Origin: a virus
Direction: 5' to 3' (one strand)
IMG/VR virus record: IMGVR_UViG_3300037585_001784
Span: 1-29,543 of that record
Length of the DNA stretch: 29,543 nucleotides
The translations under genes were made by a program, and so were the position numbers. Numbering within the stretch: position 1 is the first letter of the stretch; each line of letters starts with the position of its first letter. Shown piece after piece: positions 9,685 through 29,201 of this stretch. A model generated the notes under the pieces. That model ran no database searches. It worked only from the letters and a program-made list of their open reading frames with translations, and was not told where the DNA came from.

Positions 9685-11738
9685 GGTTCCACCAGCATTA
9701 TTGTACTTGATCCCCTCTCGTCATAGCCTGTAGACTCCAGTCCGGTAGCAGAAGTGACATCTACATAGTAGTTTCTGTTGGTACTATCGTCATCTCTGAA
9801 CGTAAACTCTACCAACGTACTGCTTTCTATTGCAGATATGAGAGCTGACCTAAGTTGTTTGGGAGTCTTGCCTTTATAGTCTCTGTTTAGACTTACACCC
9901 ACCTGATGCCCCCATTTAGCATCTAATTTCTTTCTCCATATCAAGGTCATAGACACTACATCAGGGCTATTTTTTAGATAGTTAGCCTCACTTGTAGTGG
10001 TTGACCTAGCGAGAGTTAGTTTGAACTTGATAGATCTAAACTTTTTACCTATAGGATTATTGCTACCATCCCTAAACGAAAATTCAGTTATTCCTGATGT
10101 TGTTCCAAGGGTTGTACTTGTTATAGTACTGATATCATCACCAGAACTATCGGTAAAACTTGAATAGCTTTCATTATAATCAGTAGCATATTGAACCTGT
10201 ACAGTTTCTTTGGTAGATAAATCCTGTGTTTCAACCTTTAACTCTAATGCTAATTTATCTATCTCACTCTGTCCTGCATTGAACCAAGGAGTCTCATGTA
10301 CTCCTGAAGATTTATACTCAAATTCTGTAACCTTAGAGGGGTTTATGATATCTACAGGTAGCTTCATATAATATACCCTGTCATTAAATCCCCACCATAA
10401 TCTATAATTTTCATTCACATCAGAGTATGCATTGGAAACGTGCATGGCATCTATCTTTCTACCTGCGGTAGATGCTACCCACTTAGCTTCCCACCCTAAA
10501 TCGTTATATCCAAGTATAGAGCTGTATCCTGAAGCGTTATCTATAACAGGAGAGCCGAAATGGTGCATACTCCACTGATATGGAACACTATCAGTCGATG
10601 TAACTGTGGGATTTGTAGTAGAATCTACGCCTACCAGCAACTCATTATGAGTACCTTCTGCAAGCATTATAGTTCCTCTATTATCAGTGGGTAGACCGTC
10701 ATCTCTGTCCGGCCCTACAACAGTAAGTACGGCATTGTTAGATCCGTTGATATATTTGTATAATCCTAATCCACTGGGGAAATATATACTGTCACGCCAC
10801 CTGGTAGTGCCTTTTCCAGCGTGTGGATGAAAAGGAAAATCCATTTCTGTCTGTACAAACTTAGCGTGCATGACATCATGTGCCCATAATCCCTGCTTTG
10901 TAGCTGCATATAATATAGGCTCACCACGTGTATCTCTAGCTACAAATAATCCTGTTACATACCCTTCAGGTAGAGGTAAAAGGGCATCATCTGTCTCTGT
11001 TCCGGGTGTTATTGCGTGCCATAGCTGACCCGCATAAGATATACCCCATAACTTACCATCCCATTCTGCAAGGTACTTGGTATCTTTAGCATCGTTAGTC
11101 CATGCGGCATTACTACTTCCGTCATAACTAGGAACAGTAGCATAACTATACCCAGTTCCGTTACTGTCATAATGTGCAAGTACAAGGTAGTTATTATTAG
11201 ACCTATCGGTAAAGTTTAGAGAATCTGTTACCTGGTCAGGAACTCCAAAGCTATCGCTTCCGTTAACTCCTATAGCCTGATCTGCTACCCTACCATCCCA
11301 CCAATAATCTGATGCATTATTATATACAAATATCTTTGGAGATTCAGATATACTACCGTTCCATACGGCATATATCTTGTCTTTAAACTCAGTTATGGCT
11401 GCTATTCCAGTACCTACACCTGATTTTACAAGTCCGTGTGCATGGGTATCTGTTGCGTTTGCATAGTTTCCAAGTACTAAATGATTCTTATATCTAAGCT
11501 GACAGTCACTCCACCATGCTCTATTAACCTCTCCACCTTCCATCCTGTCTATACCTATGCCACCACGCCAGTCAGACCATGCTATGATGGATGACCGTAA
11601 CTGTGAGTCCTTACTGGTATCACCTATGACTACCTTACTTGGGTATATAGACGCAAGTACGCTCTGTACAGGACGTTCTATAGGGAAATAGGTTTCGTTG
11701 AGATATATCTCATTTGGAGATACTACCTTATTAGCCAT
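9681..11738 (-). CDS. Large tail protein with beta-propeller-like repeats
   Basis: A 685-aa protein rich in Trp, Tyr, Gly and Asp. The region ~90-400 shows recurrent strand-turn units such as ITEFKDKIYAVWNG, YLAEWDGKLWGISYAG, GEPILYAATKQGLWAHD and RWRDSIYFPSGLGLYKY, as in beta-propellers. The C-terminal third (from ~480) changes to a beta-sandwich-like region (TEFEYKSSGVHETPWFN, TEFSFRDGSNN) and ends with strands FTFRDDDSTNRNYYVD. I know of no enzyme signature in it. Start and previous stop share one base (TAATG). It is probably a tail hub or baseplate protein that supports the fibre; this rests on size, composition and gene order. Confidence 0.7.
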   Translation of the reverse strand: MANKVVSPNEIYLNETYFPIERPVQSVLASIYPSKVVIGDTSKDSQLRSSIIAWSDWRGGIGIDRMEGGEVNRAWWSDCQLRYKNHLVLGNYANATDTHAHGLVKSGVGTGIAAITEFKDKIYAVWNGSISESPKIFVYNNASDYWWDGRVADQAIGVNGSDSFGVPDQVTDSLNFTDRSNNNYLVLAHYDSNGTGYSYATVPSYDGSSNAAWTNDAKDTKYLAEWDGKLWGISYAGQLWHAITPGTETDDALLPLPEGYVTGLFVARDTRGEPILYAATKQGLWAHDVMHAKFVQTEMDFPFHPHAGKGTTRWRDSIYFPSGLGLYKYINGSNNAVLTVVGPDRDDGLPTDNRGTIMLAEGTHNELLVGVDSTTNPTVTSTDSVPYQWSMHHFGSPVIDNASGYSSILGYNDLGWEAKWVASTAGRKIDAMHVSNAYSDVNENYRLWWGFNDRVYYMKLPVDIINPSKVTEFEYKSSGVHETPWFNAGQSEIDKLALELKVETQDLSTKETVQVQYATDYNESYSSFTDSSGDDISTITSTTLGTTSGITEFSFRDGSNNPIGKKFRSIKFKLTLARSTTTSEANYLKNSPDVVSMTLIWRKKLDAKWGHQVGVSLNRDYKGKTPKQLRSALISAIESSTLVEFTFRDDDSTNRNYYVDVTSATGLESTGYDERGSSTIMLVEP

Positions 11739-15095: not shown

Positions 15096-15959
15096 TTAAC
15101 TCGTTGCAGGAGCAGCAGCATCAAAAGTAAGAGGTGCACCACGGCTGTCATCAAGTTCAAACACACCATAGTCAGAAGTCATTACGATTTCTGTTGCCCT
15201 TAAAGAAGCGTCTCTCTGTCTTTCAGTCTTAGTCGTTAAACTATTAAGTACAGCTAATGCAGATTTATCAGCTATTACACCTATTGCATCATCACCACTA
15301 CTTGTTGACAAGTTTCCATCTTCAAAGATAGGAACATTGTTAAGTGGTCGTATACCACTCCAGAAGTTGCCGAGTAAATCCTCAGACCAACCTTTTGGAA
15401 TTGCATACTGAGATGCTGTTACAGCACTACTTGCTATATCAAACACAGCATTTGGATGCTGAAGTATATATAGCTGACTGCCGAACTTGTTTGCTTTAGC
15501 GTAAGCAATCGCTGCTGCAACAAAGGCTAGACTCATATCTGTGGCATTTGCTCCAAGAGTAGTACCTCCGTTAAGAGCAGAATACAATGCATGAACATCT
15601 GTATCCTTTTTTCTAGCCATACCGTCACCCAACTGCCTGCCTATAATAGACATTACGTTGACTGCCGATTGCCTTAGAAGTTTATCCGTAATGATAACTT
15701 TAGCCCCTACTTCAGACGCAGTAAGATCAACAGTTGTCATTCCGATTTCTTCTTCGTCTACTATGTCCTGACCATCGACTAGGTCTGACATAGTCATCTG
15801 TCCTACTTTAGGGACAGTCACTTGCTTCTCGCCTTTTCCAAGGCTAAAACTCTCTATAAGAGCCATAGCAGGTGCGTTGTGTTCCTCGGTGTACCGAGCA
15901 GCACTTATAATTATTTTCTGGGCATTTTCTAGATTCCCAGTTGTCGAAGTCTGTGGCAT
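15096..15959 (-). CDS. Major capsid protein (HK97-fold type)
   Basis: A 287-aa protein directly after the Gln-rich scaffold-like gene. It shows the layout of compact HK97-fold coat proteins: a helical N-arm (ENAQKIIISAARYTEEHNAP), a segment resembling the E-loop (KQVTVPKVGQMTMSDLVDGQ), the spine helix and P-domain strands (EVGAKVIITDKLLRQSAVNV), and an Ala-rich A-domain (YAKANKFGSQLYILQHPNAVF) with the late motif GIRPLNNVPIFEDGNL, typical of coat proteins that contact neighbours. The C-terminal region (TEIVMTSDYGVFELDDSRGA) ends in a short Ala tail. GGAGGT sits just before ATG 15959, partly within a small hairpin. Strong by gene order and sequence character. Confidence 0.85.
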   Translation of the reverse strand: MPQTSTTGNLENAQKIIISAARYTEEHNAPAMALIESFSLGKGEKQVTVPKVGQMTMSDLVDGQDIVDEEEIGMTTVDLTASEVGAKVIITDKLLRQSAVNVMSIIGRQLGDGMARKKDTDVHALYSALNGGTTLGANATDMSLAFVAAAIAYAKANKFGSQLYILQHPNAVFDIASSAVTASQYAIPKGWSEDLLGNFWSGIRPLNNVPIFEDGNLSTSSGDDAIGVIADKSALAVLNSLTTKTERQRDASLRATEIVMTSDYGVFELDDSRGAPLTFDAAAPATS

Positions 15960-15984: not shown

Positions 15985-16749
15985 TTAGCCTAGTCCGGCA
16001 GCACGTCTGGCTGCTGCTTCGGTTTGGGAGTTTCTAACCCCCGAGTTATACTGATCTAAGAGTTCGTCCTCAGAACCTGATGCACTTGCAGCAGGTTGAT
16101 TAGTATCAAATTGTTGTGGCTGGACTTGTGCTTTCTTGAGTGCATCAAGTTCAGCTTTAGTCTGCCTTAGTTCCTGTATCCTTTTAGCTTCAGTCTCCAT
16201 ATCCTGTGGAGTACCGTGTTTCTCAAGAGAAGGCATATCATCAAAACCTAATCCATATTTCTTTGCAAAAAACATGGATGCATTTCTCTGTCCATCCCTA
16301 AACTCCTGCTGTTGCTTCAACTGTTGCTGTTGCTGCTGAGACTGCTGCATCTGTGAAACATAGTTTTGAGCTACGGTCTGTGCCTGGTCGGGCATCCAAC
16401 CCTGCTCTTCTAGTTGCTTCTGATATGCAATAGCCTGTTGTTGAGCTTTGTTTTGAGCATCAACGTCAGCAAGATACTGTAACTGCTGTTGCTGTTGAGC
16501 AATAGTCTGTTGTAGATTAGCCATTCTACTTGGTTCAGCTACGGGCTCTTGAGTCTGTACTGGCTCCCCCTGTTGTACAGTCTCAGGTTGCGGTTGAGCT
16601 GCTTCTGGTTGATTAGTAACCTGGGCAGTATCCTCCGCTACAGGCTGTTCAGTAGTTTCTGCTACCGGCTCCTGCGTAGCTGTTTCTACCTGTACCTCTG
16701 ATTGAGGTTCGGGTGTCACTTCTACTATTTGTTCATTTTCTGTAACCAT
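15985..16749 (-). CDS. Scaffold-like protein, Gln/Glu-rich
   Basis: A 254-aa protein composed of an acidic Glu/Gln/Pro/Val-rich first third (TEQPVAEDTAQVTNQPEAAQ), a long Gln-rich coiled-coil middle (QQTIAQQQQQLQYLADVDAQ; SQQQQQQLKQQQEF), and a C-terminal helical part (ETEAKRIQELRQTKAELDAL) ending in Arg/Ala-rich sequence. This composition, the size and the position directly before the major capsid gene are what phage scaffolding proteins show: an internal core that guides capsid assembly and then leaves. Underlying DNA has CTG/TTG low-complexity tracts. GGAGGG lies 6 bases before ATG 16749, and a strong promoter match lies just upstream. Confidence 0.8.
   Translation of the reverse strand: MVTENEQIVEVTPEPQSEVQVETATQEPVAETTEQPVAEDTAQVTNQPEAAQPQPETVQQGEPVQTQEPVAEPSRMANLQQTIAQQQQQLQYLADVDAQNKAQQQAIAYQKQLEEQGWMPDQAQTVAQNYVSQMQQSQQQQQQLKQQQEFRDGQRNASMFFAKKYGLGFDDMPSLEKHGTPQDMETEAKRIQELRQTKAELDALKKAQVQPQQFDTNQPAASASGSEDELLDQYNSGVRNSQTEAAARRAAGLG
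16313..16350. repeat. CTG/TTG low-complexity tract in the scaffold gene
   Basis: Imperfect tract of TTGCTG/CTGCTG triplets encoding a poly-Gln run; a similar shorter tract lies near 16480-16500. It is a candidate site of triplet slippage. Confidence 0.6.
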
Positions 16750-16805: not shown

Positions 16806-19800
16806 TTATCCTTTATACAATTCCTGCAGCAATGGTTTTTTCTGCCTTTCTTGTTGCTCCAGAGCCTGTCTTTTTTCTCTTACAGATTCGGGAACACGCC
16901 TTTCTTCTGCACCAAATCCTTCAACAAATGGACTTCCCGAACTTCTTAGTTTTCTAGCCATGTCGTATTTAACCTGAGTTATATACGGTAAGTGAGGAAG
17001 AATATTTTCCGGTATATTTATATCATATGCGTTCATTCTAACCCATGCTAAAGCCATAGATGCCTCTGGATGAGCAGATTTCTGAAGACTATTTTCAAAC
17101 GAATCCAGCATCTTATTATATTCATCAGCTCCCCGTGCTCCAGACCTTATCTTTCTCCACTCTGCAAGTTTTCTATTTTTAAAGTCCATCTGCTGTAGTT
17201 CTTGTTCAGTAATATCTTTCCATTCCTCTCCATACATAGACTGGTCTTTTCTGGAAAAGAAGTCAGAACGTATAGAAAAGAATAGGTCACCTATTTTGCT
17301 TCTTACTGCATCTGGGACACCTTTTATATTCTGCATCTCATAACTTTGAATCCATTCATTTACAGACATAGTTTGACCACCGATAGTCAGTCCTATAGTA
17401 CCTATATTGTTTATAGAATCCTGTTCGTTTCTATTAAGTTCTGCAAGTTCCCCGGTTAATCCGGAAGTTCTTTCCATACCTCTTGCAGTCTCTTTTTCTC
17501 TTCCTATCTGCTTAACCGTCTGTTGTGTCACTATACCGGGTTCTTTGCCCATCTCTGGTAATTCTTCATACCCCAAAGGAGATTCCCATGCAGAGGTAAG
17601 TTCTTTGGCTATATCCTCTTTAGTTATATATGTAGATGTACCTATACCAAATGTTTCTGCGATACCCGCACCTGCTATTCTAAGATAAGCATCCCATCCG
17701 GCTCTACGTTCTGAAGGATCTACTCCAATTCTCTCTGCCATTTCTGCAGGAACCATAGGGGTTGCATATTCGTCATAAGCATCATGTATAGTTTCTATCA
17801 TCATTGGAACTACCATCTGATACCATAAGCTACTTTGTGTATATGCAGGTTTTTTCATGTCTGTCCATATATCTGCATCCTCACCAAAGAATCCCTCTCC
17901 TGTTATAGCATATTTTTTAACTGCCTGTCCTGCAGGAGAAAACTTTGATACGGCAAATCTTCCTAGAACATCTAGCCTGTCTACATCCATAGTCTTTCCC
18001 GTAGTGGTTTCTCTTTCTCCTGATGCTGTTTGAGCTACTGCTTTTGCCAAAGGAGCATAACCAGCCCATATATCAAATGTAGTATTTCCTATCTTAACCT
18101 TTCCAAAGTCACTTGCATTAGGATTTATTCCTGCATCTGCTCCGGGTATAAAGTATTTAAAGAAAAGCATAAGGCTTACACCGGTACCTACCCATGAAAC
18201 AAGTCCTGTTGACACACCTGATATTGCTGCTCTAGCCGTAGAATTACCCATTTTTCTTGAAGCCATCATGGCAGAATAGGGAAGTCTTATACGTGAAGTT
18301 AAAAATCTTGGTGACCATAGAAATGCGTTCATCACAGAATAAGTTGTCTTTGCCCAATGACTTCCATAGGCATCTGTCATTGCTCTAGGCAATGGGCCTC
18401 TTCCAGTAGCATCATTTATAAATTTAGCATTCCAACTTAATGCATCCCAATACTCTGGGTCTTTCCTAAATGAAGACATCTCTTTACCTGCGTTTCTCAT
18501 TACCATCTCATAGTCTCTAACACGATTCAGGAACGTATCAAAACGTAACTTATTACCCATAGTCACATACGCTCTTTCAGATGCCCTTATATATGGAATA
18601 CCACGTACCAAGGCTGACTGAAATTCATCTTCTCTAGCTGTTATATTAAGCATGCCGGTCACGTCTGTTAAATCTAATCCTGCCCTTTGAGATACAGGAT
18701 ATAACTCATGATTTTTAATTGAATTATCAACTACAAGTGCAACCCGTTCTCCACCCGGTAATGCAGTTTTAAGCATCATATTAAAAGAACTTTTCCATGC
18801 TTTGGGATCATGTGCTAGCAACACCATTCCCTGCCTAAAAGCAAACGATAGGTCAAATGATGCTCTAAGACTTTTGGGTAAGGATATTAGATTCCATATA
18901 AGTTCCTGTGGAGTAGAGTTTCCTATTCCTTTTAATCCAAGCACACGCCCAACAGGAGCAAGTGCACTCATTCCCGGTATTCTAGATAATCTATTTGCAA
19001 TGGTGCTTACTCTTTTAGCTAACAGAGCTTTACCTACATTAGGGCCTAATAAAGTCGCAAGCTGATGTATAGCATATTCGTTTGGAATAGTACCTAGATT
19101 AAAGATAGAATGAAAAGCCTTTATTGAATCATTCAGAGCATAAGGGCCAGCAAGTCCACTGCTGCTTACTGTTTGCCCCTTACTTATAGCCTCTGCTTGT
19201 AACTCTTCTAGTCTTGTTTGTATACGATCCCATTCCTTCTGTGTGTTAAATTTTCCAGAACGTAATCCCTGCAGCATTTCATCATCAAGCCGATTAAACA
19301 TTCCTGTATATGCTTTATTATTATAAAGCTCTTCAAAGGCTGCTTCAAATACATCCATCATCATCCTGTGTACTTCTTCAGGATTATCTAATATTTCCCT
19401 TAAAGGCTTATCCATTTGATGGGGGCCTAGTCTACCTACCAGAACTCTTAGGTTAGTCTTATATAATGAAGCTGCAGTAATATCATCTCCGGGAAACAAA
19501 TTCCTCATGTTACCCATAAGAGCTTTAGCCCCTTCAGTTAGTTGTCCTCCTCTAGCTAGTTCTCTAGCTTCATAAGATGGTTTGGTAGCGGTAATAGCTT
19601 TAGACATAGGCTCTATAAGGGTATCATATATACCATCAATACCTACTGACTCAGCCCAGCTTACGCCACGCTTGTATTCCGGTGCAGCAAATTTTGTAAG
19701 TGCCGGTACAAACCTAAACCATTTAGGCCCATGTACATCAGTAACTATTGCCTTTAATGTATTTTTCCAAGATATTTTTTCTTGCCCTTCTGCAACACCA

Positions 19801-21395
19801 GTTCTTGTTAATTTCTCAAACATTTTTGAACTGCCACCATGCATTGATATAACCATATTTTCACCTGATTGAAGAAGTTCAGGAGACTCTTTTGCAGACG
19901 GAACTATTTTACCGTTTATATATCCTTTTATAGGTTTAGCTTTAAAGAAAGGAGTTTCAAATGCTTGTACATTAAAACGTGCAGCTTCTATTTCTTCTGC
20001 TTCACTTATGTTTCTAAGTGCCTTATTTCGGATTTCAGAAGCTGTTTCAAATCTACCAACTGATGCACCAAACATATTTGACTCAGCTTCATCCATGTTC
20101 TTTGCAAAAGAATTAAATATATCCAGTTGCTCTGCTTCACTAAATAATCGTTTAGTATTTCTAGTAAGCATTAAAGCAGCTAGTTTATCTGGGAGTATGT
20201 GTACACCACTTAACTTCTGAGGGCTACTTAAAAGAGATCTAAAATTATCAATTGTGGCTTGTTCTGACGGGCCAAGTATATCTTTTGGATTAATCCATCT
20301 TTCGCCCTCTACACCAGCCGGACGATATTTCATTGAACTTTCTCTTGGTCTAGCTACAATAGGAATGTCTGGAAGGTCAAACTTTTTAAATCTTTCGGGT
20401 AATATATCTGGTTTTTTTATTTCCAGCCCCTCAAGCACATCTTTGGTTCTAGCTAGTGGAGTCAATCCCTCACCTTTAGTTACATCGAAAGGCATCCTTT
20501 GTTGTTCTGCTATATTAATCGCACGTTGTCCGGGTAATAATTGCTGTTGAATTGGTCTTATGCCAAGACCTTCTGCCATCTCACGTCCTAGTCCTTCTGC
20601 AGCTTGTTGTAACTGAGTACCTGGAGTTTGTGTAGGTAATGGAATTGGATATAAAGTAGGGTCGGCAATATCCATTACACCTTGTTGTAAAGGTCTTGCC
20701 GCTTTAGCAATAGGCGGAATAACATTAAAGGGAATAGCTAGTGCCTGAGTAGTAGGTTGCGTAATAGGTGGAGTAGGAATATTATCTGCGGCTTTTCTTA
20801 AGTCTGTTTCAGGAATATTGAATCTTTTAAACCAAGAAGGAAGAAGTTCTACATTAGTTTCTGCTGCAGGCTTCAGAGCCTTTGCAGCTAGTCCTGTACC
20901 ACGCAGGGCTTTTACTCCCCTGATTCCCGCTCCAACCACCTTGCCTATTCCGGCACCTAATGCCCAATCCAAAGGATTAAATACACTTGTTCCTATCTCC
21001 TGCCACCACGGACGTTCCTCAAATCTCTTCTCTAGTATTTTTCCTGTTTCGTATAAATGTTTGGCATATTCAGGAGAAGTTCCTATGCCTACGGGGCCTG
21101 CTTTAAACGCACCAAACTTTTCTGCTATCTCCTTATTCATCTTCCTACGTTCAGCTATTATTTTTCTTGTCTCTATTGCTCTTTCACCACCGCCACCTAT
21201 ATAAGGAATACTTTCAGGTATCAAGCCTGTAGCCAGAGAATAAGCCGCTTCAGGCATTGCCTCAAAACCTAGGTTCCATACGTCTGCGGCAATAGGCATT
21301 GCACGTTCCATTACCTGTGTGGTAACTCCCTTCTGCCTATCTTCCTCAAGTCTTTTTATTGAGTTGTCTACGTATTCCTGTGATGGTCTTCCCAT
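16806..21395 (-). CDS. Giant internal virion / polyvalent protein (LPD38-like)
   Basis: A 1529-aa protein, the largest gene in the window. Residues ~1-160 contain helical and Gly-rich patches (YSLATGLIPESIPYIGGGG, EIGTSVFNPLDWALGAGIG) that may touch membrane. Residues ~170-400 are Pro/Gln-rich and variable. Around 850-1000 are LISLPKSLRASFDLSFAFRQ, then SERAYVTMGNKLRFDTFLNR, and around 1090-1115 NPNASDFGKVKIGNTTFDIW. From memory these match large polyvalent proteins of phages carrying an LPD38-type domain. A hydrophobic span (SGLVSW-like, VGTGVSLMLFFKYF) lies at ~1055-1080. The last ~300 residues are charged and helical. Such proteins travel inside the head and are thought to act at or after ejection. 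Domain naming is moderate confidence; the virion role is inferred. Confidence 0.75.
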   Translation of the reverse strand: MGRPSQEYVDNSIKRLEEDRQKGVTTQVMERAMPIAADVWNLGFEAMPEAAYSLATGLIPESIPYIGGGGERAIETRKIIAERRKMNKEIAEKFGAFKAGPVGIGTSPEYAKHLYETGKILEKRFEERPWWQEIGTSVFNPLDWALGAGIGKVVGAGIRGVKALRGTGLAAKALKPAAETNVELLPSWFKRFNIPETDLRKAADNIPTPPITQPTTQALAIPFNVIPPIAKAARPLQQGVMDIADPTLYPIPLPTQTPGTQLQQAAEGLGREMAEGLGIRPIQQQLLPGQRAINIAEQQRMPFDVTKGEGLTPLARTKDVLEGLEIKKPDILPERFKKFDLPDIPIVARPRESSMKYRPAGVEGERWINPKDILGPSEQATIDNFRSLLSSPQKLSGVHILPDKLAALMLTRNTKRLFSEAEQLDIFNSFAKNMDEAESNMFGASVGRFETASEIRNKALRNISEAEEIEAARFNVQAFETPFFKAKPIKGYINGKIVPSAKESPELLQSGENMVISMHGGSSKMFEKLTRTGVAEGQEKISWKNTLKAIVTDVHGPKWFRFVPALTKFAAPEYKRGVSWAESVGIDGIYDTLIEPMSKAITATKPSYEARELARGGQLTEGAKALMGNMRNLFPGDDITAASLYKTNLRVLVGRLGPHQMDKPLREILDNPEEVHRMMMDVFEAAFEELYNNKAYTGMFNRLDDEMLQGLRSGKFNTQKEWDRIQTRLEELQAEAISKGQTVSSSGLAGPYALNDSIKAFHSIFNLGTIPNEYAIHQLATLLGPNVGKALLAKRVSTIANRLSRIPGMSALAPVGRVLGLKGIGNSTPQELIWNLISLPKSLRASFDLSFAFRQGMVLLAHDPKAWKSSFNMMLKTALPGGERVALVVDNSIKNHELYPVSQRAGLDLTDVTGMLNITAREDEFQSALVRGIPYIRASERAYVTMGNKLRFDTFLNRVRDYEMVMRNAGKEMSSFRKDPEYWDALSWNAKFINDATGRGPLPRAMTDAYGSHWAKTTYSVMNAFLWSPRFLTSRIRLPYSAMMASRKMGNSTARAAISGVSTGLVSWVGTGVSLMLFFKYFIPGADAGINPNASDFGKVKIGNTTFDIWAGYAPLAKAVAQTASGERETTTGKTMDVDRLDVLGRFAVSKFSPAGQAVKKYAITGEGFFGEDADIWTDMKKPAYTQSSLWYQMVVPMMIETIHDAYDEYATPMVPAEMAERIGVDPSERRAGWDAYLRIAGAGIAETFGIGTSTYITKEDIAKELTSAWESPLGYEELPEMGKEPGIVTQQTVKQIGREKETARGMERTSGLTGELAELNRNEQDSINNIGTIGLTIGGQTMSVNEWIQSYEMQNIKGVPDAVRSKIGDLFFSIRSDFFSRKDQSMYGEEWKDITEQELQQMDFKNRKLAEWRKIRSGARGADEYNKMLDSFENSLQKSAHPEASMALAWVRMNAYDINIPENILPHLPYITQVKYDMARKLRSSGSPFVEGFGAEERRVPESVREKRQALEQQERQKKPLLQELYKG

Positions 21396-22027
21396 TAAAA
21401 ATATATATGTCTAGCTTTAGGACTATACCTAGCTGTAGACTCTCCTCTTTCACTTGGAGTTAATTTGCCATATCTTTTTGTAAACGGATCGGTTTCTAGA
21501 TAGTCAGTAAAGAACGTTGCATCTTCTGGTATTCCTTTACTCATCTGATCTTTTTGGTATCCAAGAAACTCATCGTAGATTTGCTCAAAGCTATTTTGGA
21601 AAAATCTTCTTTTGGCAGGAGACATATCACCGAATGCCTGTCCAGCTCCACTGCCATAGTAAGCCATCCGTGGTTCTACAAGATCTGGTGCAAGTGGAGT
21701 ATTAAAATTAGAAAAAGCATTCTGTCCAATGGTATTTCCAGCACCTAGGTCTGAATAACCAATACCAGTACCACCAAAACCTGTCTGTGCTGCAGGTCTG
21801 ACAATATTGCCTTGAGAGTCTATAGTCCAAGCAGGATTATCTCCCGTCCACCCACCTTCTTTGGTAAACTTATAGCGTTCCTTATCAAGCCTTGGGTCTT
21901 TAGGGTAATATGTACCATTTATATATACTCCCATAGTAGCTCCCGTATTTTGCCCTGTATTTACACCAGATGCAAAAGGTCGTGCCGGGTTTTGTGCATC
22001 CCATAAATCTATTGAAGTGTATGCCAT
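21395..22027 (-). CDS. Hypothetical virion-associated protein
   Basis: A 210-aa protein rich in Gly, Asn, Pro and aromatic residues (SGVNTGQNTGATMGVYINGT, AAQTGFGGTGIGYSDLGAG), looking largely disordered or loop-rich in its first 120 residues. A more structured helical part follows (SPAKRRFFQNSFEQIYDEFL), then a basic, Tyr-containing end. The stop region overlaps the start of the 1529-aa gene by one base, so the two are translated together. It may be a small partner of the large internal protein. No known family. Confidence 0.65.
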   Translation of the reverse strand: MAYTSIDLWDAQNPARPFASGVNTGQNTGATMGVYINGTYYPKDPRLDKERYKFTKEGGWTGDNPAWTIDSQGNIVRPAAQTGFGGTGIGYSDLGAGNTIGQNAFSNFNTPLAPDLVEPRMAYYGSGAGQAFGDMSPAKRRFFQNSFEQIYDEFLGYQKDQMSKGIPEDATFFTDYLETDPFTKRYGKLTPSERGESTARYSPKARHIYF

Positions 22028-22053
22028 AATCTATCCTCTATAAGCATTATTAT

Positions 22054-22803
22054 TTAAAATCCTTCTACCGGCATTCCTGAGGTTGGATACCGTGTTGGTG
22101 GACGTATAGGCATCAGCCTCCTAAATGGTACCCATGGTGGTAATGGATTAATTTCCTGTTGCATTTGTGGATACCCACGGTAACCTCTTTCTATTTGACC
22201 AGTAAATCCTCTAGGTGGTACAACTGCCGGGCCAATTCTGCTAGGAGTAGGATAAGGGTGCGTATAATCCCAAGGAATACCAGTACTATTTGGTTCAAAT
22301 GCACCTCCTGCCATCCACGGAGTTACATCAACCCCAACATCAGTTCCTCTACGAATAGTTGGGCCAGTCATGGGGCCTCTAGGAGTGTAAGGGCCCTGTT
22401 GCATGTTAGTCGACGGACTGCGGGTATAGTCATATGTGTAAGGTATAGGCGAAAGATTATTTTTAAACATCTGTCTGACTTCCGATAGCCCTAAAGGTGA
22501 AGGTGTAGGTAGTGCTCCTAACGGAGGCTTTGAAATAGGAGGTTGTTCCCTAGGAGTGTAAGGTAGTGCTCCTCCTAACGGAGGCTTTGAAATAGTAGGT
22601 TGTAAGTTTCTAAGTTGGTTTCTAAGTTGGTTTCGTCCCCAATCGCCAAGACCTTCTCTCATTTCACGTCCACCATATTGACTTGCGTATTCAGCGAAAG
22701 TTTCAGGACTTCTTTCTCTCCACTCTTCTCTAATACCAGTAGGAAGCCTATTGGTTCTTGCTCCCTGGGCTGCATCAAATCTGTCAACATAATTCATAGT
22801 CAT
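22054..22803 (-). CDS. Proline-rich repeat-containing hypothetical protein
   Basis: A 249-aa protein. The first ~65 residues are charged and helical (EEWRERSPETFAEYASQYGG) with a tandem QLRNQLRN duplication. From ~70 on it is Pro/Gly/Arg-rich with repeated motifs ISKPPLGGALPYTPRE and ISKPPLGALPTP, plus further YTPRG elements, giving an extended, disordered protein. Matching DNA duplications are present. It lies between portal-side genes and the giant internal protein. A flexible internal virion or linker protein is plausible; I recognise no family. Confidence 0.6.
   Translation of the reverse strand: MTMNYVDRFDAAQGARTNRLPTGIREEWRERSPETFAEYASQYGGREMREGLGDWGRNQLRNQLRNLQPTISKPPLGGALPYTPREQPPISKPPLGALPTPSPLGLSEVRQMFKNNLSPIPYTYDYTRSPSTNMQQGPYTPRGPMTGPTIRRGTDVGVDVTPWMAGGAFEPNSTGIPWDYTHPYPTPSRIGPAVVPPRGFTGQIERGYRGYPQMQQEINPLPPWVPFRRLMPIRPPTRYPTSGMPVEGF
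22507..22603. repeat. Two-copy direct repeat (about 40 bases) in the Pro-rich gene
   Basis: Copy A at 22507-22546 and copy B at 22561-22603 share AGGTAGTGCTCCT and CTAACGGAGGCTTTGAAATA; copy B carries an in-frame 3-base insertion. Each encodes an ISKPPLGxALP unit. A shared CTAGGAGTGTAAGG also recurs at 22379-22392 and 22550-22563. Confidence 0.8.
22606..22634. repeat. 12-base tandem duplication
   Basis: GTTTCTAAGTTG occurs twice in tandem (22606-22617 and 22618-22629), followed by a partial third copy GTTTC. It encodes the QLRN-QLRN repeat in frame. Confidence 0.85.
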
Positions 22804-22830
22804 AATTTATCTCCAATATATCTATTGTTA

Positions 22831-24780
22831 TTACCATCCTCTGCCCGGATAATCCATACCGAATGTCCTACTCCAAGGATTTTGTATTCCTTTTTGCCAA
22901 GCATATGCAAAAGGGTTATCGTATTGTAATTGAAAACCCTCTGGATATCCTAGGATTTTTCTTTGTTCTTGATACACATCTGATGCTATATCAAACTCTG
23001 GCCTATCTTCGGCAGGTATTGGATGTGTCCATTCTTCATAAGGTGTTGGATATTCGGACATAGTCCACTCACCAACATGGCCGGGAAATAGTCCCATCTG
23101 CTCAGGGGTCAAGGATGAAAATGGTCTAGGTGGAGTAGCTAGAAGGTGTTCCCGAGTTGCTTGGTCACCCCAAGGCAAAGAATCACTTTGATTAAGTATC
23201 TTGGCTATTCTATCCTTTGAAGTGGTTCCTAAAGATGAATCCCAAATAGTAGGTTTGGGTATATTTGTTTCGCCAATTGAACCAATAAGTCCCTGAGTAC
23301 CCTCAAGATCATATACTTCAGAAGGAGCAGAACCTACTGTAGGCAGTCCAGTAAAGGGAGTATAGCCTTGAAGCTGGTGGTCATAACCACTTGTATCTTG
23401 AATTCCCGGTATTACAGGAGTAAATGGTGAAACGTAATTAATATCTTTAGGATTTTCAGGAATTGGAGCATTGTCAAATATATTTGCTATATTAGCAGCA
23501 ATTGAAGCATCATCTCCACCAAAAGCCCCCGGTAATAAATCTGTGCTAGGCGTATATCTTGGTTCTCCTGTTTGGGTAAAGGGAAGATTCTTTTGTGTTA
23601 AATACTGTCTTGTAGCCATAGGTATCTCGGTAGAAATATCTTCTCCACCAAAAGACCCCGGTAATAAATCTGTGCTAGGCAGCTCCCCCCGTGTTCTTCT
23701 TGTCTCTGTAATACGGTCTTCATCTCCATATACTGTCGGTTCAAAATCAGCAATACTACCTGATTGTCCTTGATGTGTTTTTATATGGGTTGTACTTGCA
23801 GCAGTATTATCCGGTACAGTAGATTTACCCGGAGTTTCATTGCTTTCTCCTATAGAAGTGGCTTGTTTATTTGGGTCGGCTGCACCATCAGCAACCACTA
23901 ATGCTTTAGCTCCTTCTGCTGATGGAATATTTGTAGGTGCTGGAGGAATAGGTTTAGTTGCATCTCTAAACTGTTGACCTTCTACAGGCAAACCAAGTCC
24001 GTTAAGATTCCATCCACTAAATGCAAGATAGGCAATCCAATTCTGTGGAGTGGTTACAAGGTCAGGAAAGGCTCTTTCTATCCTAGATTTTTCCATATAA
24101 TACTGACGTACATATGCTTCCTTCATTTTAGGAGGCAGGGTTGAAATACCCATAACACCGAAAGCAATGGCATCTACTTGGGCTGTAGTTATTCGTCCAT
24201 ATGCTGTTTGTAGATTAGCATTGTCTGATTGGGAAGCAACGTGTTGATCAAACTGATTTAATATTTCGGCTCCACCCATAGCGTTAAATTGACTAGGATC
24301 TATAGCAGAAGGAATAAGACCTATATTTCTCATTGCTCTCATTCCATTTATCCAATCATCACGTTTCCACAAAGAGATTCCTGATTCTAAAAATTGTCTA
24401 ACAGTTCCTGTTGGTTCTTCTGCTGCCAAAGACGGAACACCAAAACCTCCTGCCCATCCTTCAAAGTCTCCAGTAGCTGGCATGATATATCCCAACCCCC
24501 ATCTACTCATTGCTTCTTCTCTCGGTCTATCCGCAGCCGCTTGGCCATAGTAACCCAAGCTCTGATAGTATGGGTCAGATAAAAGGGCTCGATCCCATAC
24601 TCTTCCCCATTTTTCGGGGTCTTCCATTTCCCTATACATTTGGGCTTCTGCAGGGGGTCTACTAAATGGAAGTTCATCTTGTGCAGGAATAGTTCCTTCT
24701 GCATCTAGATAATAATTTCCCGCTTCATCTTGCCATAAAGTTGAATCGGGTACTGGTCTTAATCGTCCTACTGCTACCAT
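22831..24780 (-). CDS. Hypothetical internal virion-type protein with disordered C-terminus
   Basis: A 649-aa protein. Residues ~1-280 are globular and helical with aromatic patches (DPEKWGRVWDRALLSDPYYQ, MKEAYVRQYYMEKSRIERAF). Residues ~285-640 are low-complexity, Pro/Thr/Ser/Gly-rich and probably disordered, with the motif STDLLPG(S/A)FGG(E/D)D present twice, 43 residues apart. It contains no Cys cluster or enzyme motif that I can see. The start overlaps the end of the 397-aa gene by 7 bases. Gene order places it between portal and scaffold in a block of unusual large proteins, suggesting an ejection or internal protein. Function not recognised. Confidence 0.65.
   Translation of the reverse strand: MVAVGRLRPVPDSTLWQDEAGNYYLDAEGTIPAQDELPFSRPPAEAQMYREMEDPEKWGRVWDRALLSDPYYQSLGYYGQAAADRPREEAMSRWGLGYIMPATGDFEGWAGGFGVPSLAAEEPTGTVRQFLESGISLWKRDDWINGMRAMRNIGLIPSAIDPSQFNAMGGAEILNQFDQHVASQSDNANLQTAYGRITTAQVDAIAFGVMGISTLPPKMKEAYVRQYYMEKSRIERAFPDLVTTPQNWIAYLAFSGWNLNGLGLPVEGQQFRDATKPIPPAPTNIPSAEGAKALVVADGAADPNKQATSIGESNETPGKSTVPDNTAASTTHIKTHQGQSGSIADFEPTVYGDEDRITETRRTRGELPSTDLLPGSFGGEDISTEIPMATRQYLTQKNLPFTQTGEPRYTPSTDLLPGAFGGDDASIAANIANIFDNAPIPENPKDINYVSPFTPVIPGIQDTSGYDHQLQGYTPFTGLPTVGSAPSEVYDLEGTQGLIGSIGETNIPKPTIWDSSLGTTSKDRIAKILNQSDSLPWGDQATREHLLATPPRPFSSLTPEQMGLFPGHVGEWTMSEYPTPYEEWTHPIPAEDRPEFDIASDVYQEQRKILGYPEGFQLQYDNPFAYAWQKGIQNPWSRTFGMDYPGRGW
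23513..23551. repeat. 39-base direct repeat, copy A
   Basis: A 39-base segment that is duplicated at 23642-23680 with a single base difference. It encodes the STDLLPGAFGGDD version of the motif. Confidence 0.9.
23642..23680. repeat. 39-base direct repeat, copy B
   Basis: Second copy, 129 bases (43 codons) from copy A, identical but for one base. It encodes STDLLPGSFGGED. The sequence between the two copies is not repeated. Confidence 0.9.
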
Positions 24781-25967
24781 TGTTGTTGCCTCCCTGCGGG
24801 TTCTAGTTTAAATCCCTGTTCTAGCATCTTTTCTTCTTGGAACTTCTGTGCTTCGCTCTTTCTTTCTGTCCAGTTAAATCCTCTATCCTTCCACTCGTTA
24901 AAGAGTTTTCTTCCTATAACCGCACTTGTTCCCGGTACTGCGTTAGGGCCGGAAATCATATTCATATCCTGCCCCATATTTTCTATTAGGAAACTATTTA
25001 CATTGTTTCTTAATTGATTTTCATAAGCTCTATTTCGTTCTTGACCTGCACCCCATCGTCCACTTTCTTTCCCAACTATCCATCCGACAACATCATTATA
25101 ATCACTTATAATCGAATTTGCCAAATTTAAATTGTCTTTTAATTCCTGTGTGGGTATATTTTGTTCTATTCCTAGTTGACTTACCTGTTTAACTATGTTT
25201 GGATCTGCGTTAATCATATCTTTAAACCCTTTGTTTTTAGATATAGAATCAAGAGCTGCACCCCACATAGCATTATTCCATGGCTTTACCTTTCCTTTAG
25301 AATAATCCTCTAAGTAATTTATATACGGCCTGTTATATGAACCTATAGTTTTTTCTATGTCGTACTGGTTACTAAGTCTTGTTAATTCTCTATCAGTTGC
25401 TTTTTTTGCATAAGCACCACGTGATTTATACCAAGAACTTTTATCTTTCCAGTAATCCACCATCATATTCTTACCTACATTATAAGTAGAAAAATCATCA
25501 CTAGCTTTTGCATCTATTCTTTGAGACATATCAGGAAGATCTGTCATCTTTATATTCTTTGCAGTAAATGTATCTCCATAATCCTGAAGTTCTACTTCTT
25601 GAGGTGGCATACCTGCCTGAGATACAGGAGCTGGTTGGCCGTAACCTTCAAAAACCTCTTCTCCGAACCTATTGCCAACCCATTCACGGACACGCATATC
25701 GGCAGGTTCGGTACCTATAGACCCCATCATTGCAAACGCAAATTGCTTGTGTAGGTCTTTATCATAGTCGGCCTGTCCTATCAAAGACGATACTGCACCT
25801 TTTATTCCTGACTTATATCCAGATGCCTCTACATATCTTCTGTATATATAATCGAGCCACTTGATATAGTCTTCGTCACTTACAACCTGTTCGCCCGGTT
25901 TGGCTTCAACCTGAAGTTCTGCTATTAAGTTCTGTACTTTCTGTCTTCTGGAATCTGGCGTAGTCAC
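24774..25967 (-). CDS. Hypothetical protein downstream of portal
   Basis: A 397-aa soluble, mainly helical protein (RQKVQNLIAELQVEAKPGEQ, DEDYIKWLDYIYRRYVEASG). A Gln/Pro linker at ~115-130 is followed by a Tyr/Lys/Asn-rich helical half, and the chain ends KLEPAGRQQQW. The start is GTG at 25967, fixed by GGGAGGATAGC upstream; it lies 1 base after the portal stop. It could be a portal-associated, head-completion or internal virion protein. No family recognised. Confidence 0.65.
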   Translation of the reverse strand: MTTPDSRRQKVQNLIAELQVEAKPGEQVVSDEDYIKWLDYIYRRYVEASGYKSGIKGAVSSLIGQADYDKDLHKQFAFAMMGSIGTEPADMRVREWVGNRFGEEVFEGYGQPAPVSQAGMPPQEVELQDYGDTFTAKNIKMTDLPDMSQRIDAKASDDFSTYNVGKNMMVDYWKDKSSWYKSRGAYAKKATDRELTRLSNQYDIEKTIGSYNRPYINYLEDYSKGKVKPWNNAMWGAALDSISKNKGFKDMINADPNIVKQVSQLGIEQNIPTQELKDNLNLANSIISDYNDVVGWIVGKESGRWGAGQERNRAYENQLRNNVNSFLIENMGQDMNMISGPNAVPGTSAVIGRKLFNEWKDRGFNWTERKSEAQKFQEEKMLEQGFKLEPAGRQQQW

Positions 25968-25968
25968 G

Positions 25969-27855
25969 CTATCCTCCCGGGCCGATAAGGCCCATACGTG
26001 CTAATCTCTCCCCTTCTGATAATGCTCCCGGTCTTGGCGTACCGGGCGGAACCATAGGCCCCATCGGTGGTGTAGGCATAGGCGGTGGAACACCCATAGC
26101 AGCGTTAGGCATCACCTCTGGAGGTAATCCCGGCCCACCCTGTGGAGCCATCATCATTTCCGGCGGCATTCCCTGTGGCATCATACCCGGAGGCCCCATA
26201 GGTGGCTGTCCCATAGGTGGCTGTGGTGGTTGAGGCATTGCTGCCTGCATCATCTGCATCTGTTGCTGCTGCATCTGCATTTGTTTATCATTAACTATCT
26301 TTAGAAGTTCACTAAAATAGAATCTGGCTAGGTCAGGTCTACCACGGTTTTCAAGACTCTGAAGTAAAGTCCAAAGCTGTGCTTCCGGCAGAGCTCTTTC
26401 TGCTGCCTGTTCTTTTAGTGTGTCTTCTATCTGGTCTGCATCCTGCATACCGAGTATTGTATCTCTTATGAATATATCAGGCAGCAAAGGAGTTTCTCCT
26501 TCTCTTGCTATTTGAGCCTGACTGTATTTAGACATATCATCCTGTGGCAGTTGAGATACCATAGTTACTTCAGGATCTCCACCTTTTTTAACTATATCAG
26601 GAGTAATCTCCTGTGAAAAATATGTTCTGTCTTTACCCATGCCGCTTACTTCTACGGCTTCAAAGCTACCTGACGCATATTGAGATGACAGCATCATGAA
26701 TATACTTCTGTATGCTTTTTCAAGGGCATCTATTCTGGGAGAAAGAACTGACTCTACGCCCTGCCTGAGTGTATTGATAGCATATCCAGACAGTTGAAAG
26801 TCAAGCTGTCCATATATTGAATAGGGCAGAGCTCCTCTTTGAATCTCTCCACTTAACTGTCCCATAAACGCCCCGGACTCTTTCGCCATATCCATCATGC
26901 CCAGAGGTTCTACATCTTCTCCCTGTGCCAAAGATATCTCTGTTCCTTCCTTGTAGGGATCTTCATCAAGGGTCTTTGTACCGTCTCTGGACTTAACCTT
27001 AAGTCCCTGCTTTCTACTTCTTGCTGTAAGTTCAAGCATAGTAGATAGCATAAAATTATTATTTTCATAGTTATTTCTATTGGCCCTGAATATACTTTCT
27101 CCTACATCTGATATAGCTTCACTGCCTATAACATCAGACTGTATAAGGGGATTTGCACCCACCATTCCAAGAAATACAGGTACTCCGTCATAGCCATGTT
27201 TGGTTCTTTTTTTCAGAATCTTATCATCCATTACGACATAGTTATCTTCCCTGTCATAAAAATCATATACATCTACGCCTGAATCGACTCCATGAGAGGA
27301 GGTATCTAGCTTAATACCGTACTGTTCTTTTATCTCGGTAGAAGTCTTTTTAATCTTATAGCACGCCCAGGTTAATCCGGTTGAGGATTCTCCCCAATAG
27401 GTATTAAGTGGATCCCAGGGGGTTATATCTATCGTAGTAGACCCGTCTTTTTCTTTTACAAGAAGGGTTCTTCCTGCGTACCACCCTCTTATGGTGGTAT
27501 ACCATGCCAATTGGTCACGTACCCGTGGAGTCATTCGCATACACAGATTATCGTCTGCTGCTTTTAAGGCACCTATTAGAAATCGTTCTTTATCGTTATT
27601 TATATCTCTTTGGTCACGTTCATTACCGCCTGCGGGGATTCTTATAATAAGTTCTGCTGCGGTTAAGAAGGTTATTATCTTATCTGCAAACACCTGTGGT
27701 TCGTTACTGGTATAGGACTGGTATCCGTCACCTGCATCGTAGGGATCCAGTCTATATAGCTTATGGTCTTCGTCCATCCTGTCCCGCATGGGGTAGGTGG
27801 AATCATGGTGGTCGTTTACAAGATTAATTATCTCTACTGGTTTTCTTTTTGCCAT
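25969..27855 (-). CDS. Portal protein
   Basis: I choose ATG at 27855 (628 aa) because it shares one base with the terminase stop (TAATG) and follows GGTGGAG; an in-frame GTG at 27864 would add three residues. The body (to ~residue 520) has portal-like layout: an N-terminal helical part with YTSNEPQVFADKIITFL, a beta-rich wing (DITPWDPLNTYWGE, DVYDFYDREDNYVVMDDKIL), and a long helical stem/crown region (QLSGYAINTLRQGVESVLSP). The last ~105 residues are a Met/Gln then Pro/Gly/Met-rich tail, likely disordered. Portals form the dodecameric ring through which DNA is packaged and ejected. Identification rests on position after TerL, size and layout. Confidence 0.85.
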   Translation of the reverse strand: MAKRKPVEIINLVNDHHDSTYPMRDRMDEDHKLYRLDPYDAGDGYQSYTSNEPQVFADKIITFLTAAELIIRIPAGGNERDQRDINNDKERFLIGALKAADDNLCMRMTPRVRDQLAWYTTIRGWYAGRTLLVKEKDGSTTIDITPWDPLNTYWGESSTGLTWACYKIKKTSTEIKEQYGIKLDTSSHGVDSGVDVYDFYDREDNYVVMDDKILKKRTKHGYDGVPVFLGMVGANPLIQSDVIGSEAISDVGESIFRANRNNYENNNFMLSTMLELTARSRKQGLKVKSRDGTKTLDEDPYKEGTEISLAQGEDVEPLGMMDMAKESGAFMGQLSGEIQRGALPYSIYGQLDFQLSGYAINTLRQGVESVLSPRIDALEKAYRSIFMMLSSQYASGSFEAVEVSGMGKDRTYFSQEITPDIVKKGGDPEVTMVSQLPQDDMSKYSQAQIAREGETPLLPDIFIRDTILGMQDADQIEDTLKEQAAERALPEAQLWTLLQSLENRGRPDLARFYFSELLKIVNDKQMQMQQQQMQMMQAAMPQPPQPPMGQPPMGPPGMMPQGMPPEMMMAPQGGPGLPPEVMPNAAMGVPPPMPTPPMGPMVPPGTPRPGALSEGERLARMGLIGPGG

Positions 27856-29201
27856 TATCTCCACCTTTTGACTTTGATTCTGTCCCTGCCCTCAATATAT
27901 CCGTAGCCATATCTTTCGACAAGCCCATAAATCAGTGCTTTTATACCGTGATTATGTTTATCTTCCGGAGTTTCTCCAACAATATTGCCTTCTCTGTCTG
28001 TTTTCCACCTATAAGTTCTGGTTTGTCCATCAAAAGGTGACGGAGCTGCACCAAATTCACTCAAAACTCCCAAACATCTGTTGTTTATTATAATATTCGG
28101 CTCTTTTGACAGCGGATCCGGCTTTAAAAATGATTTTAAACGCTCAGTTCCGTCATTTATTTTAACTTTTTCTGAAGAAAGGTACAATCCCGTCTCTTTC
28201 ATCCATATCTCTGCAGGTGCAGCCATCGCCTGGTGCTGATAGCCGGCAACGTCTATGACTCCGAACTGTACATCCTTCCACCACTCACGGGATTTACATA
28301 TATCTATCATCTCTTCTGTAACAAGGCCACGTTCATAGACTTCATCTATGACTACAACCTTATCGTCTATTATCTGTATAGCTTCAACGGCATAAGCACC
28401 GGCATAACCGGGATCCATCCATAGGTGTACAGGAGTATCTTCAGTATATTCTATATCTGCTATGTGCATATCGGCCCTGAACTCAGGAAACACCAGTCCT
28501 TTAGGCGGTGAAGGTATTCCTTCTATTCTTTCCATAAAGAAACTATCAGATGCTTCTCTTTCCAGCTTTAATATTTCAGGGTCTTGCCTTCCACCGGGGT
28601 ATAGATGCTGGTTAGTATAGCTTGGCAGTGAAAAACTCTGTTCATCTTCAGTAGGAACAGTCCACGACATATGCATTTGTGGATACCACCCCAGACTGCC
28701 CTCGAAAGTCCCTGCTAAAAACAGCCATCCACGTTTGGGAGCGACCCTACCACGGAGCCTGAAAAACGTCTCGAGGTCAAGCTGACTCGCCTCGCACCCG
28801 ATAATACCGTTCGGGGCACGCATAGCCAGAGTTCTGGGGTCTTTAGCTGATTTAGTCTCTATCCTGGTACCGTCTGCGAGTACAATCCTACCCGGATCTA
28901 CCCTTTTGGTAGTCTCTTTAAGTACTCCAAGCTTACCAAAGTCATCTACAAGATATTCAAACTCTGCTCTGGTACGTTCATAGTCTGCAGCAACAAGCCA
29001 GTACAGTCCGGGTTCTTCTGTTTCAGAAAATCTGGACAATAGATACTTGCTTGCAATCATGGATTTACCCGCCTGCTCACCGCCTGCCACCAGGATAAAC
29101 CTTTTTTTACTTTCTAAAATAGGGTTTTGTGCCTCAGTAGGCTCAAATCCAACCAGTTTATATATATATTCAGGTACGTTAACCTGAGTCTGGGTTGTCA
29201 T
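27855..29201 (-). CDS. terL: Terminase large subunit (packaging ATPase/nuclease)
   Basis: A 448-aa protein with Walker A at residues 40-47 (GGEQAGKS), a Walker B-like strand ending in acidic E137 (GIIGCEAS), a coupling-type GTF at 164-166, and a C-terminal RNase H-like nuclease with D263 (MDPGYAGAY), IDEVYERG near 285-292 and D317 (GVIDVAG). It drives ATP-powered DNA packaging and cuts concatemers. The last acidic site is odd: the usual DHxxDAxxY pattern reads NHGIKALIY here, with Lys where Asp is common. Start ATG 29201 follows GGGAG and overlaps the small-subunit gene by 23 bases. Confident by motifs and order. Confidence 0.92.
   Translation of the reverse strand: MTTQTQVNVPEYIYKLVGFEPTEAQNPILESKKRFILVAGGEQAGKSMIASKYLLSRFSETEEPGLYWLVAADYERTRAEFEYLVDDFGKLGVLKETTKRVDPGRIVLADGTRIETKSAKDPRTLAMRAPNGIIGCEASQLDLETFFRLRGRVAPKRGWLFLAGTFEGSLGWYPQMHMSWTVPTEDEQSFSLPSYTNQHLYPGGRQDPEILKLEREASDSFFMERIEGIPSPPKGLVFPEFRADMHIADIEYTEDTPVHLWMDPGYAGAYAVEAIQIIDDKVVVIDEVYERGLVTEEMIDICKSREWWKDVQFGVIDVAGYQHQAMAAPAEIWMKETGLYLSSEKVKINDGTERLKSFLKPDPLSKEPNIIINNRCLGVLSEFGAAPSPFDGQTRTYRWKTDREGNIVGETPEDKHNHGIKALIYGLVERYGYGYIEGRDRIKVKRWR

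What the first reader, a model, noticed from the sequence alone, without database searches (positions are those of the whole stretch)
16806..25967. A 9-kb block of five unusual proteins inserted between portal and scaffold
Portal is usually close to scaffold/protease and capsid genes. Here a 1529-aa LPD38-like protein and four unrecognised proteins (397, 649, 249, 210 aa), several disordered and repeat-bearing, separate them. This looks like a head-loaded ejection set, possibly a new internal-protein system delivered with the DNA.
Basis: partly seen in the sequence, partly recalled or inferred. Interest (0 to 1): 0.7.

Follow-up and report, generated by a model that had tools for sequence, protein, structure and literature searches.

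The report
Swappable DNA-ejection protein cassette in phages
In a large group of uncultured, apparently short-tailed viral contigs (related to marine phages), the genes between portal and scaffold most likely encode proteins carried inside the head and ejected with the DNA, and this stretch is swapped between phages as a block with sharp edges while the capsid genes around it stay nearly identical.

Summary
The five ORFs exist exactly where stated, on one strand, between portal and scaffold. They are not a one-off insertion. In all 31 related viral contigs where I could see the whole portal-to-scaffold stretch, the order is portal, one to four variable genes, a small conserved protein (homologue of the 210-aa ORF, mostly 104-134 aa), a giant protein (1401-2935 aa), scaffold, capsid. 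The five do not always travel together: only the small protein and the giant are universal. The giant's C-terminal half is conserved at profile level in nearly all relatives; its N-terminal half and the upstream genes turn over. Phages with 97-100% identical capsid proteins can carry giants 27-43% identical or undetectably similar, and in most such pairs nucleotide similarity stops within about 25 bases of the giant's stop codon. The phage looks short-tailed (nozzle-like 685-aa protein, no tape-measure gene), so the block is the best candidate for its ejection proteins, placed before the capsid gene instead of after the tail genes. LPD38 membership of the window's giant is not supported; one slot-mate has true LPD38. 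Virion location is inferred, not shown. New variant of a known kind.

The parts
16806..21395 (-). Giant protein, 1529 aa; C-terminal half (about residues 750-1490) is the conserved core, N-terminal half variable; proposed main ejection/internal virion protein
   Evidence: ORF; core matches relatives at 22-80% and other clusters by profile (win-c45 2e-54, win-c79 4e-35, win-MW202497 2e-17); predicted mostly helical but low confidence (pLDDT 60)
21395..22027 (-). 210-aa ORF; its last ~105 residues are the only other universally conserved member of the slot (homologues mostly 104-134 aa)
   Evidence: hhalign E 1e-37 to 1e-50 against 15 relatives; found next to the giant in all contigs with a full slot view
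22054..22803 (-). 249-aa proline-rich protein; lineage-specific
   Evidence: Among surveyed loci only in near-identical contigs and L003; 16% proline; position-equivalent unlabelled ORF in L118
22831..24780 (-). 649-aa variable slot protein, proline-rich
   Evidence: Relatives in L003, L022/L099 and a partial match in L045/L109
24774..25967 (-). 397-aa variable slot protein directly after portal
   Evidence: Relatives in L003, L010, L011, L022/L099, partial matches in L018, L012-L014, L045
16771..16799 (-). Promoter-like site (TTGACA-17-TAAAAT, 11 of 12) in the 56-nt gap between giant and scaffold; edge of the exchanged stretch
   Evidence: promoter-like sites in the region are at chance number overall; TTGACA recurs in the same gap of several relatives
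25969..27864 (-). Portal (by position), left border of the slot
   Evidence: Follows TerL; family of 15 homologues, 34-94% identity to the window; weak profile match to pelagiphage portals
15985..16749 (-). Scaffold-position protein, right border of the slot
   Evidence: Directly before capsid in relatives; same place as annotated scaffolds of HTVC111P/202P/026P
15096..15959 (-). Major capsid protein
   Evidence: PF25209 4.2e-9, phrog_267 2.3e-10; at least 566 related stretches in viral contigs
9681..11738 (-). 685-aa nozzle/tail-hub-like protein, indicates a short tail
   Evidence: AF2 pLDDT 73; best Foldseek hits Pa223 phage tail 9nwi_Y 3.6e-10 and VP1 portal-tail 8zkk_O 5e-10; T7 gp12 7boy 1.9e-6

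Best explanation
The block is the internal-virion (ejection) protein module of a short-tailed phage. Its members would be made with terminase and portal, enter the prohead at the portal vertex, and leave through the portal ahead of or with the DNA to help it cross the cell envelope, as T7 gp14/15/16 and P22 gp7/16/20 do. The 105-aa conserved protein and the C-terminal core of the giant would be the constant part; the giant's N-terminal half and the one to four upstream proteins would be the host-facing part, exchanged between phages as a cassette whose edges lie at the portal stop and at the giant stop. A promoter-like site just after the giant (in the window and some relatives) would let scaffold and capsid be made in much larger amount than the low-copy portal and ejection proteins. 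Shown here: gene order, universality of the small protein plus giant, profile-level conservation of the core, cassette replacement with sharp edges. Inferred: virion location, ejection, envelope role, promoter function, host-facing role of the variable part.
For: 31 of 31 contigs with a full portal-to-scaffold view have the small protein followed by a giant of 1401-2935 aa just before scaffold. Nozzle-like 685-aa protein and no tape-measure-sized ORF other than the giant and the fibre in the long relatives read. In MW202497, a circular complete genome, the homologous giant (profile E 2e-17) follows a protein matching virion-structural and Hc3 head-closure families and a 331-aa protein, the usual ejection-protein place. 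Slot-mate L063 (capsid 81% identical) carries true LPD38; the LPD38 giant gp69 of podovirus JC1 was found in virions by mass spectrometry (PMC9144972). The pattern 'small protein most conserved, large one diverges fastest while portal stays conserved' is that of known ejection proteins (PMC8954989). Cassette exchange: L071/L072 capsid 100%, giant 27%, DNA 99.6% identical from 22 nt after the giant's stop; L002/L022 96.5% identical from the giant's last bases; L079/L084 similar up to the portal stop and again from the giant's last bases.
Against: No proteomics. No sequence or fold match to any solved ejection protein; the giant core model is low confidence (pLDDT 60) and has no PDB match at E 1e-3. 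No clear transmembrane segment at a strict hydropathy cut-off in the window's giant, whereas gp14- and gp16-like proteins have predicted ones. No enzymatic domain in the window's block. The 685-aa match includes a beta-propeller, a common fold. Portal identity is mostly positional. Some contig junctions could be assembly chimeras.
Confidence: 0.7

Rival explanations
1. The giant is a polyvalent effector protein: packaged and injected mainly to disarm the host (anti-restriction or host modification), the N-terminal halves being different effector domains.
For: One slot-mate has LPD38, a polyvalent-protein domain; such proteins are proposed to be injected with DNA (PMC5512222); N-terminal turnover would suit an arms race.
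Against: No convincing enzymatic domain was recovered in 23 giants: beyond one LPD38, only AAA_17 (0.0014), DUF6809 (0.0021) and ATLF (0.0086) at marginal E-values. The window's protein has none.
Confidence: 0.15
2. The block encodes head-assembly or head-completion proteins (portal-vertex or minor head proteins, like the gene between portal and scaffold of the pelagiphages) that stay in the head and are not ejected.
For: Distant capsid relatives HTVC026P/111P/202P and Mae-JY09 have one or two genes in this position, one annotated 'head morphogenesis domain' in Mae-JY09.
Against: None of the tested block proteins or giant clusters matched those genes by profile comparison (nothing above the printing threshold); the pelagiphages have annotated tape-measure genes; turnover and size do not suit a purely structural role.
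Confidence: 0.12
3. The apparent cassette swaps are metagenome assembly artefacts at the conserved scaffold/capsid boundary.
For: Capsid and downstream genes are nearly identical in some pairs (L071/L072 99.6%), the situation in which assemblers join strains.
Against: In other pairs the flanks are clearly diverged (90-97.5%: L002/L037, L002/L022, L079/L084, L047/L074); identical giant+capsid combinations recur in separate assemblies (L018/L019/L139, L063/L064, L167/L168); the slot differs throughout the group, not only in a few pairs.
Confidence: 0.1

Closest known systems
T7/P22-type ejection (internal virion) protein modules
   Same: Adjacent genes with a small, best conserved protein and large, fast-diverging ones; gp15/gp16-like proteins vary widely in size while portal is conserved (PMC8954989)
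   Different: [quoted passage not shown] here they lie between portal and scaffold. No detectable homology; giants reach 2935 aa against 1337 for the largest gp16 in that review; no membrane helix was seen in the small protein while gp14-like proteins have two or more predicted
LPD38 / DarB-like polyvalent giants (podovirus JC1 gp69; Vibrio phage 1.232.O, PTXU04, D274 giants)
   Same: Giant protein, LPD38 near the C terminus, virion-associated in JC1; one slot-mate (L063) has true LPD38
   Different: The window's giant has no LPD38 match by HMM or profile; in those phages the giant sits late in the structural module, downstream of the portal/capsid or head-closure genes, and JC1 gp69 has enzymatic domains
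MW202497 (Manatee Spring phage) 1582-aa protein
   Same: Homologous core (26.5% over residues 831-1154, tblastn 2e-10; profile 2e-17)
   Different: Located after the capsid and head-closure-like genes, not before scaffold; the profile match covers only residues 744-1257
Pelagibacter phages HTVC026P/111P/202P
   Same: Capsid 28-33% identical; terminase-portal-(gene)-scaffold-capsid order
   Different: Annotated tape-measure genes; no giant and only one or two genes in the slot, with no detected similarity to the block

Membership tests
Podovirus ejection (internal virion) protein module | Encoded by a short-tailed phage | tested here: met
   685-aa protein best matches podophage tail proteins; no tape-measure-sized ORF other than giant and fibre in long relatives. 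Support, not proof: no micrograph
Podovirus ejection (internal virion) protein module | Cluster of adjacent genes with a small conserved and large variable proteins | tested here: met
Podovirus ejection (internal virion) protein module | Located downstream of capsid and tail genes (usual order, PMC10386132) | tested here: not met
   Between portal and scaffold in 31 of 31 contigs; only the MW202497 homologue is downstream. Position is usual rather than strictly defining
Podovirus ejection (internal virion) protein module | Sequence or fold similarity to known gp14/15/16 or gp7/16/20 | tested here: inconclusive
   No Pfam/PHROG/PDB sequence match; core model low confidence, no PDB fold match
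Podovirus ejection (internal virion) protein module | Predicted membrane-spanning segments in gp14- and gp16-like members | tested here: inconclusive
   No window over Kyte-Doolittle 1.6 in the window's block; single windows in L003, L079, L072 and MW202497 giants
Podovirus ejection (internal virion) protein module | Present in virions and ejected into the cell | not testable with these tools
   Needs proteomics and infection assays
LPD38 polyvalent proteins (PF18857) | Match to the LPD38 model | tested here: not met
   Window giant: none; core profile against LPD38 profile: probability 0.1%. Slot-mate L063: met, 1.9e-20
LPD38 polyvalent proteins (PF18857) | Several enzymatic domains in one polypeptide | tested here: not met
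   No domain above cut-off in the window's giant

The most novel reading that the evidence does not exclude
In this phage group the portal-scaffold interval is a dedicated exchange site for genome-delivery machinery: a constant 105-aa adaptor and a constant C-terminal core load any of many unrelated giant N-termini and partner proteins through the same portal and tail, so that phages change how they cross the envelope (and perhaps which host they enter) by swapping this cassette while keeping the same capsid.
Probability: 0.35. Interest if true: 0.7.

Novelty: new variant of a known kind. Interest (0 to 1): 0.56.

Why it matters
Ejection proteins are among the least understood parts of short-tailed phages and are hard to find by sequence. 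Here is a phage group (more than 550 related capsid and portal stretches in the collection) in which their probable genes sit in an unusual, fixed place and are replaced as a unit against nearly identical capsids. That gives natural swap pairs (L071/L072, L079/L084, L002/L022) for asking which parts are constant loading parts and which are envelope- or host-specific.

Tried and rejected
LPD38 for the window's giant: Pfam hmmscan, family search and profile-profile comparison all negative; by eye both have a helix, hydrophobic segment and hairpin in similar order, kept only as a lead. phrog_342 (internal virion protein with endolysin domain) in L021: short weak match (5e-4, 9.8 bits) and the family rings in 8 of 14 control genomes, not used. 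MuF/head-morphogenesis homology: no profile match. Paralogy of the window's 397- and 649-aa proteins: E 1e-3, probability 17%, not claimed; it is clear in other members (L030, L047, L056, L074, L077, E 1e-25 to 1e-62). Host: capsid scan of genome contigs found no relative. Fold search of the giant core: no PDB match at E 1e-3; four viral-library matches at E 1e-3 or better, none with an informative name. One all-pairs profile run timed out and was redone in pieces. A DNA-level search for the LPD38 region in phages found nothing. One alignment request failed on a frame error and was repeated. Literature searches found no description of an ejection module in this position, but the library holds only open-licence papers.

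Full report
What is there. The window is a 29,543-base viral record. On its minus strand lie, in transcription order, TerS (cut), TerL, a 631-aa portal-position gene, ORFs of 397, 649, 249, 210 and 1529 aa, a 254-aa scaffold-position gene, the 287-aa capsid gene, then 107, 253, 120, 63, 498, 685, 98, 135 and 834-aa genes. TerL and capsid are firm by HMM. The portal is assigned by place and family conservation; 15 homologues gave no PHROG match and the only outside support is a weak collinear profile match to pelagiphage portals.

Neighbourhood survey. Capsid, portal and giant queries brought in about 165 loci from IMG/VR contigs, extended where needed. By my count, 31 contigs show the full portal-to-scaffold stretch: the window, L002, L003, L018, L022, L030, L044, L045, L047, L056, L063, L064, L066, L071, L074, L077, L079, L084, L134, L139, L146, L150, L161, L163, L167, L168, L176, L180, L181, L188 and L189. 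A few of these are near-identical copies from other samples. All 31 have a giant (1401-2935 aa) directly before scaffold and a small homologue of the 210-aa ORF directly before the giant; for L163 and L079 the latter was found by HMM. In L079 and L084 the scaffold-position ORF (297-298 aa) was assigned by place and labelled by profile. Between portal and the small protein lie one to four genes that vary. So the slot is constant and the content is not.

What is constant. The last ~105 residues of the 210-aa protein align with 15 relatives at E 1e-37 or better. The C-terminal half of the giant (about residues 750-1490) matches relatives at 22-80% identity and, by profile comparison, nearly all other giant clusters; merging clusters stepwise links the window family with the largest family at E 2.6e-8. 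The exception is the L063 cluster, which shares short N- and C-terminal arms with the large family but carries a true LPD38 domain in between.

What is not constant. Median identities to the window over the surveyed contigs: capsid 82%, TerL 73%, portal 61%, 498-aa protein 61%, 685-aa protein 60%, scaffold 40%, small protein 33%, giant 28% where detectable (19 of 83), and the 397-, 649- and 249-aa proteins detectable by BLAST in only 3, 2 and 1 contigs. These percentages are over aligned parts only, and many contigs are fragments that could not show every gene. L045 is typical: TerL 88%, portal 79%, capsid 86%, but giant 22% over half its length and no BLAST match to the 397- and 649-aa proteins. 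Profile searches reach a few more.

Exchange. Among complete giants, pairs with capsid 97-100% identical can have giants 27-43% identical or without detectable similarity: L071/L072, L063/L066, L079/L084, L047/L074, L002/L037, L002/L022, L033/L056. Other pairs at that capsid identity have similar giants (L167/L176, 80%), so replacement is frequent, not universal. Nucleotide comparison places the edges. L071 and L072 are 99.6% identical from 22 nt after the giant's stop. L002 and L022 are 96.5% identical from the last bases of the giant. L079 and L084 are similar up to the last base of portal and again from the last bases of the giant. The window and L045 match in portal and again from the giant's last bases. 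For L047/L074 and L063/L066 the downstream similarity starts later, inside scaffold, apart from a short match in the L063/L066 gap. Divergent flanks in most pairs, and identical combinations in separate assemblies, argue against assembly chimeras as a general explanation, though single contigs may be chimeric.

The gap after the giant. In the window it is 56 nt and holds TTGACA-17-TAAAAT (16799-16771), one of the two best promoter-like sites in the 12 kb scanned; the total number of such sites equals chance (30 against 30.5), so the case rests on its place and on TTGACA recurring in the same gap of several relatives. In other relatives the gap is only 9-13 nt and holds just a ribosome-binding-type sequence, so a promoter there is not universal.

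Short tail. The 685-aa protein was modelled from 25 homologues (pLDDT 73). Its best Foldseek matches in the PDB are tail proteins of Pseudomonas phage Pa223 (9nwi_Y, 3.6e-10) and of Vibrio phage VP1 (8zkk_O, 5e-10); T7 nozzle gp12 is lower (1.9e-6). VIA-align ranks ordinary beta-propellers highest, so part of the match is a common fold. Long relatives (38-40 kb) have no tape-measure-sized ORF besides the giant and the fibre. Short-tailed phages of Gram-negative bacteria commonly carry ejection proteins (PMC8954989), and no other set of genes here looks like a candidate.

Outside comparison. MW202497, named a siphovirus by its depositors, has a portal and a head-closure-type protein by PHROG match and a homologue of the giant core after its capsid and head-closure-like genes. 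Three cultured phages with LPD38 giants also have them late in the structural module. [quoted passage not shown] JC1 gp69, with LPD38, is in the virion (PMC9144972). So the position between portal and scaffold is the unusual feature; rapid divergence and mosaicism are already known for ejection proteins, and variable islands are known in marine phages in general (PMC3909814).

Mechanism and limits. I propose low-copy expression with portal, loading at the portal vertex, and ejection through the tail, with constant loading parts (small protein, giant C-terminal core) and exchangeable host-facing parts. Only the genome anatomy and the exchange are shown. Virion location, ejection, promoter function and host-facing role are inference. 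The giant core has no confident structure or fold match, and no clear membrane segment was found in the window's protein. The host is unknown.

Verdict.

Noticed in passing
L030, L047, L056, L074, L077 portal-scaffold slots: The gene just before the small protein is a paralogue of the C-terminal part of the first slot gene of the same phage (hhalign E 1e-25 to 1e-62): slot genes seem to grow by duplication.
   Followed up: partly
window 11738-13234: The 498-aa tail protein is about 72 aa longer than most relatives (420-426 aa, including L002); part of it (residues 157-296) matches phrog_4406 and phrog_7578.
   Followed up: no
window vs L002: L002 is 98.2% identical to the window from TerL through the capsid and 107-aa genes, then only 77-85% identical: a second possible recombination point downstream of the capsid.
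   Followed up: no
L060, L066, L058 gap between giant and scaffold: TTGACA followed by a CCACATATTGTGG-type palindrome, operator-like.
   Followed up: no
window 2039-4166: By eye, an AAA ATPase/helicase-like protein, a RusA-like resolvase (3564-3962) and an HTH protein on the plus strand; not searched.
   Followed up: no
N-terminal part of giants (window residues ~127-165; L021, L051, L063): Recurring motif like PWWQ..G..v.[ND]P..[WL] roughly 120-260 residues from the N terminus, a possible shared element.
   Followed up: partly
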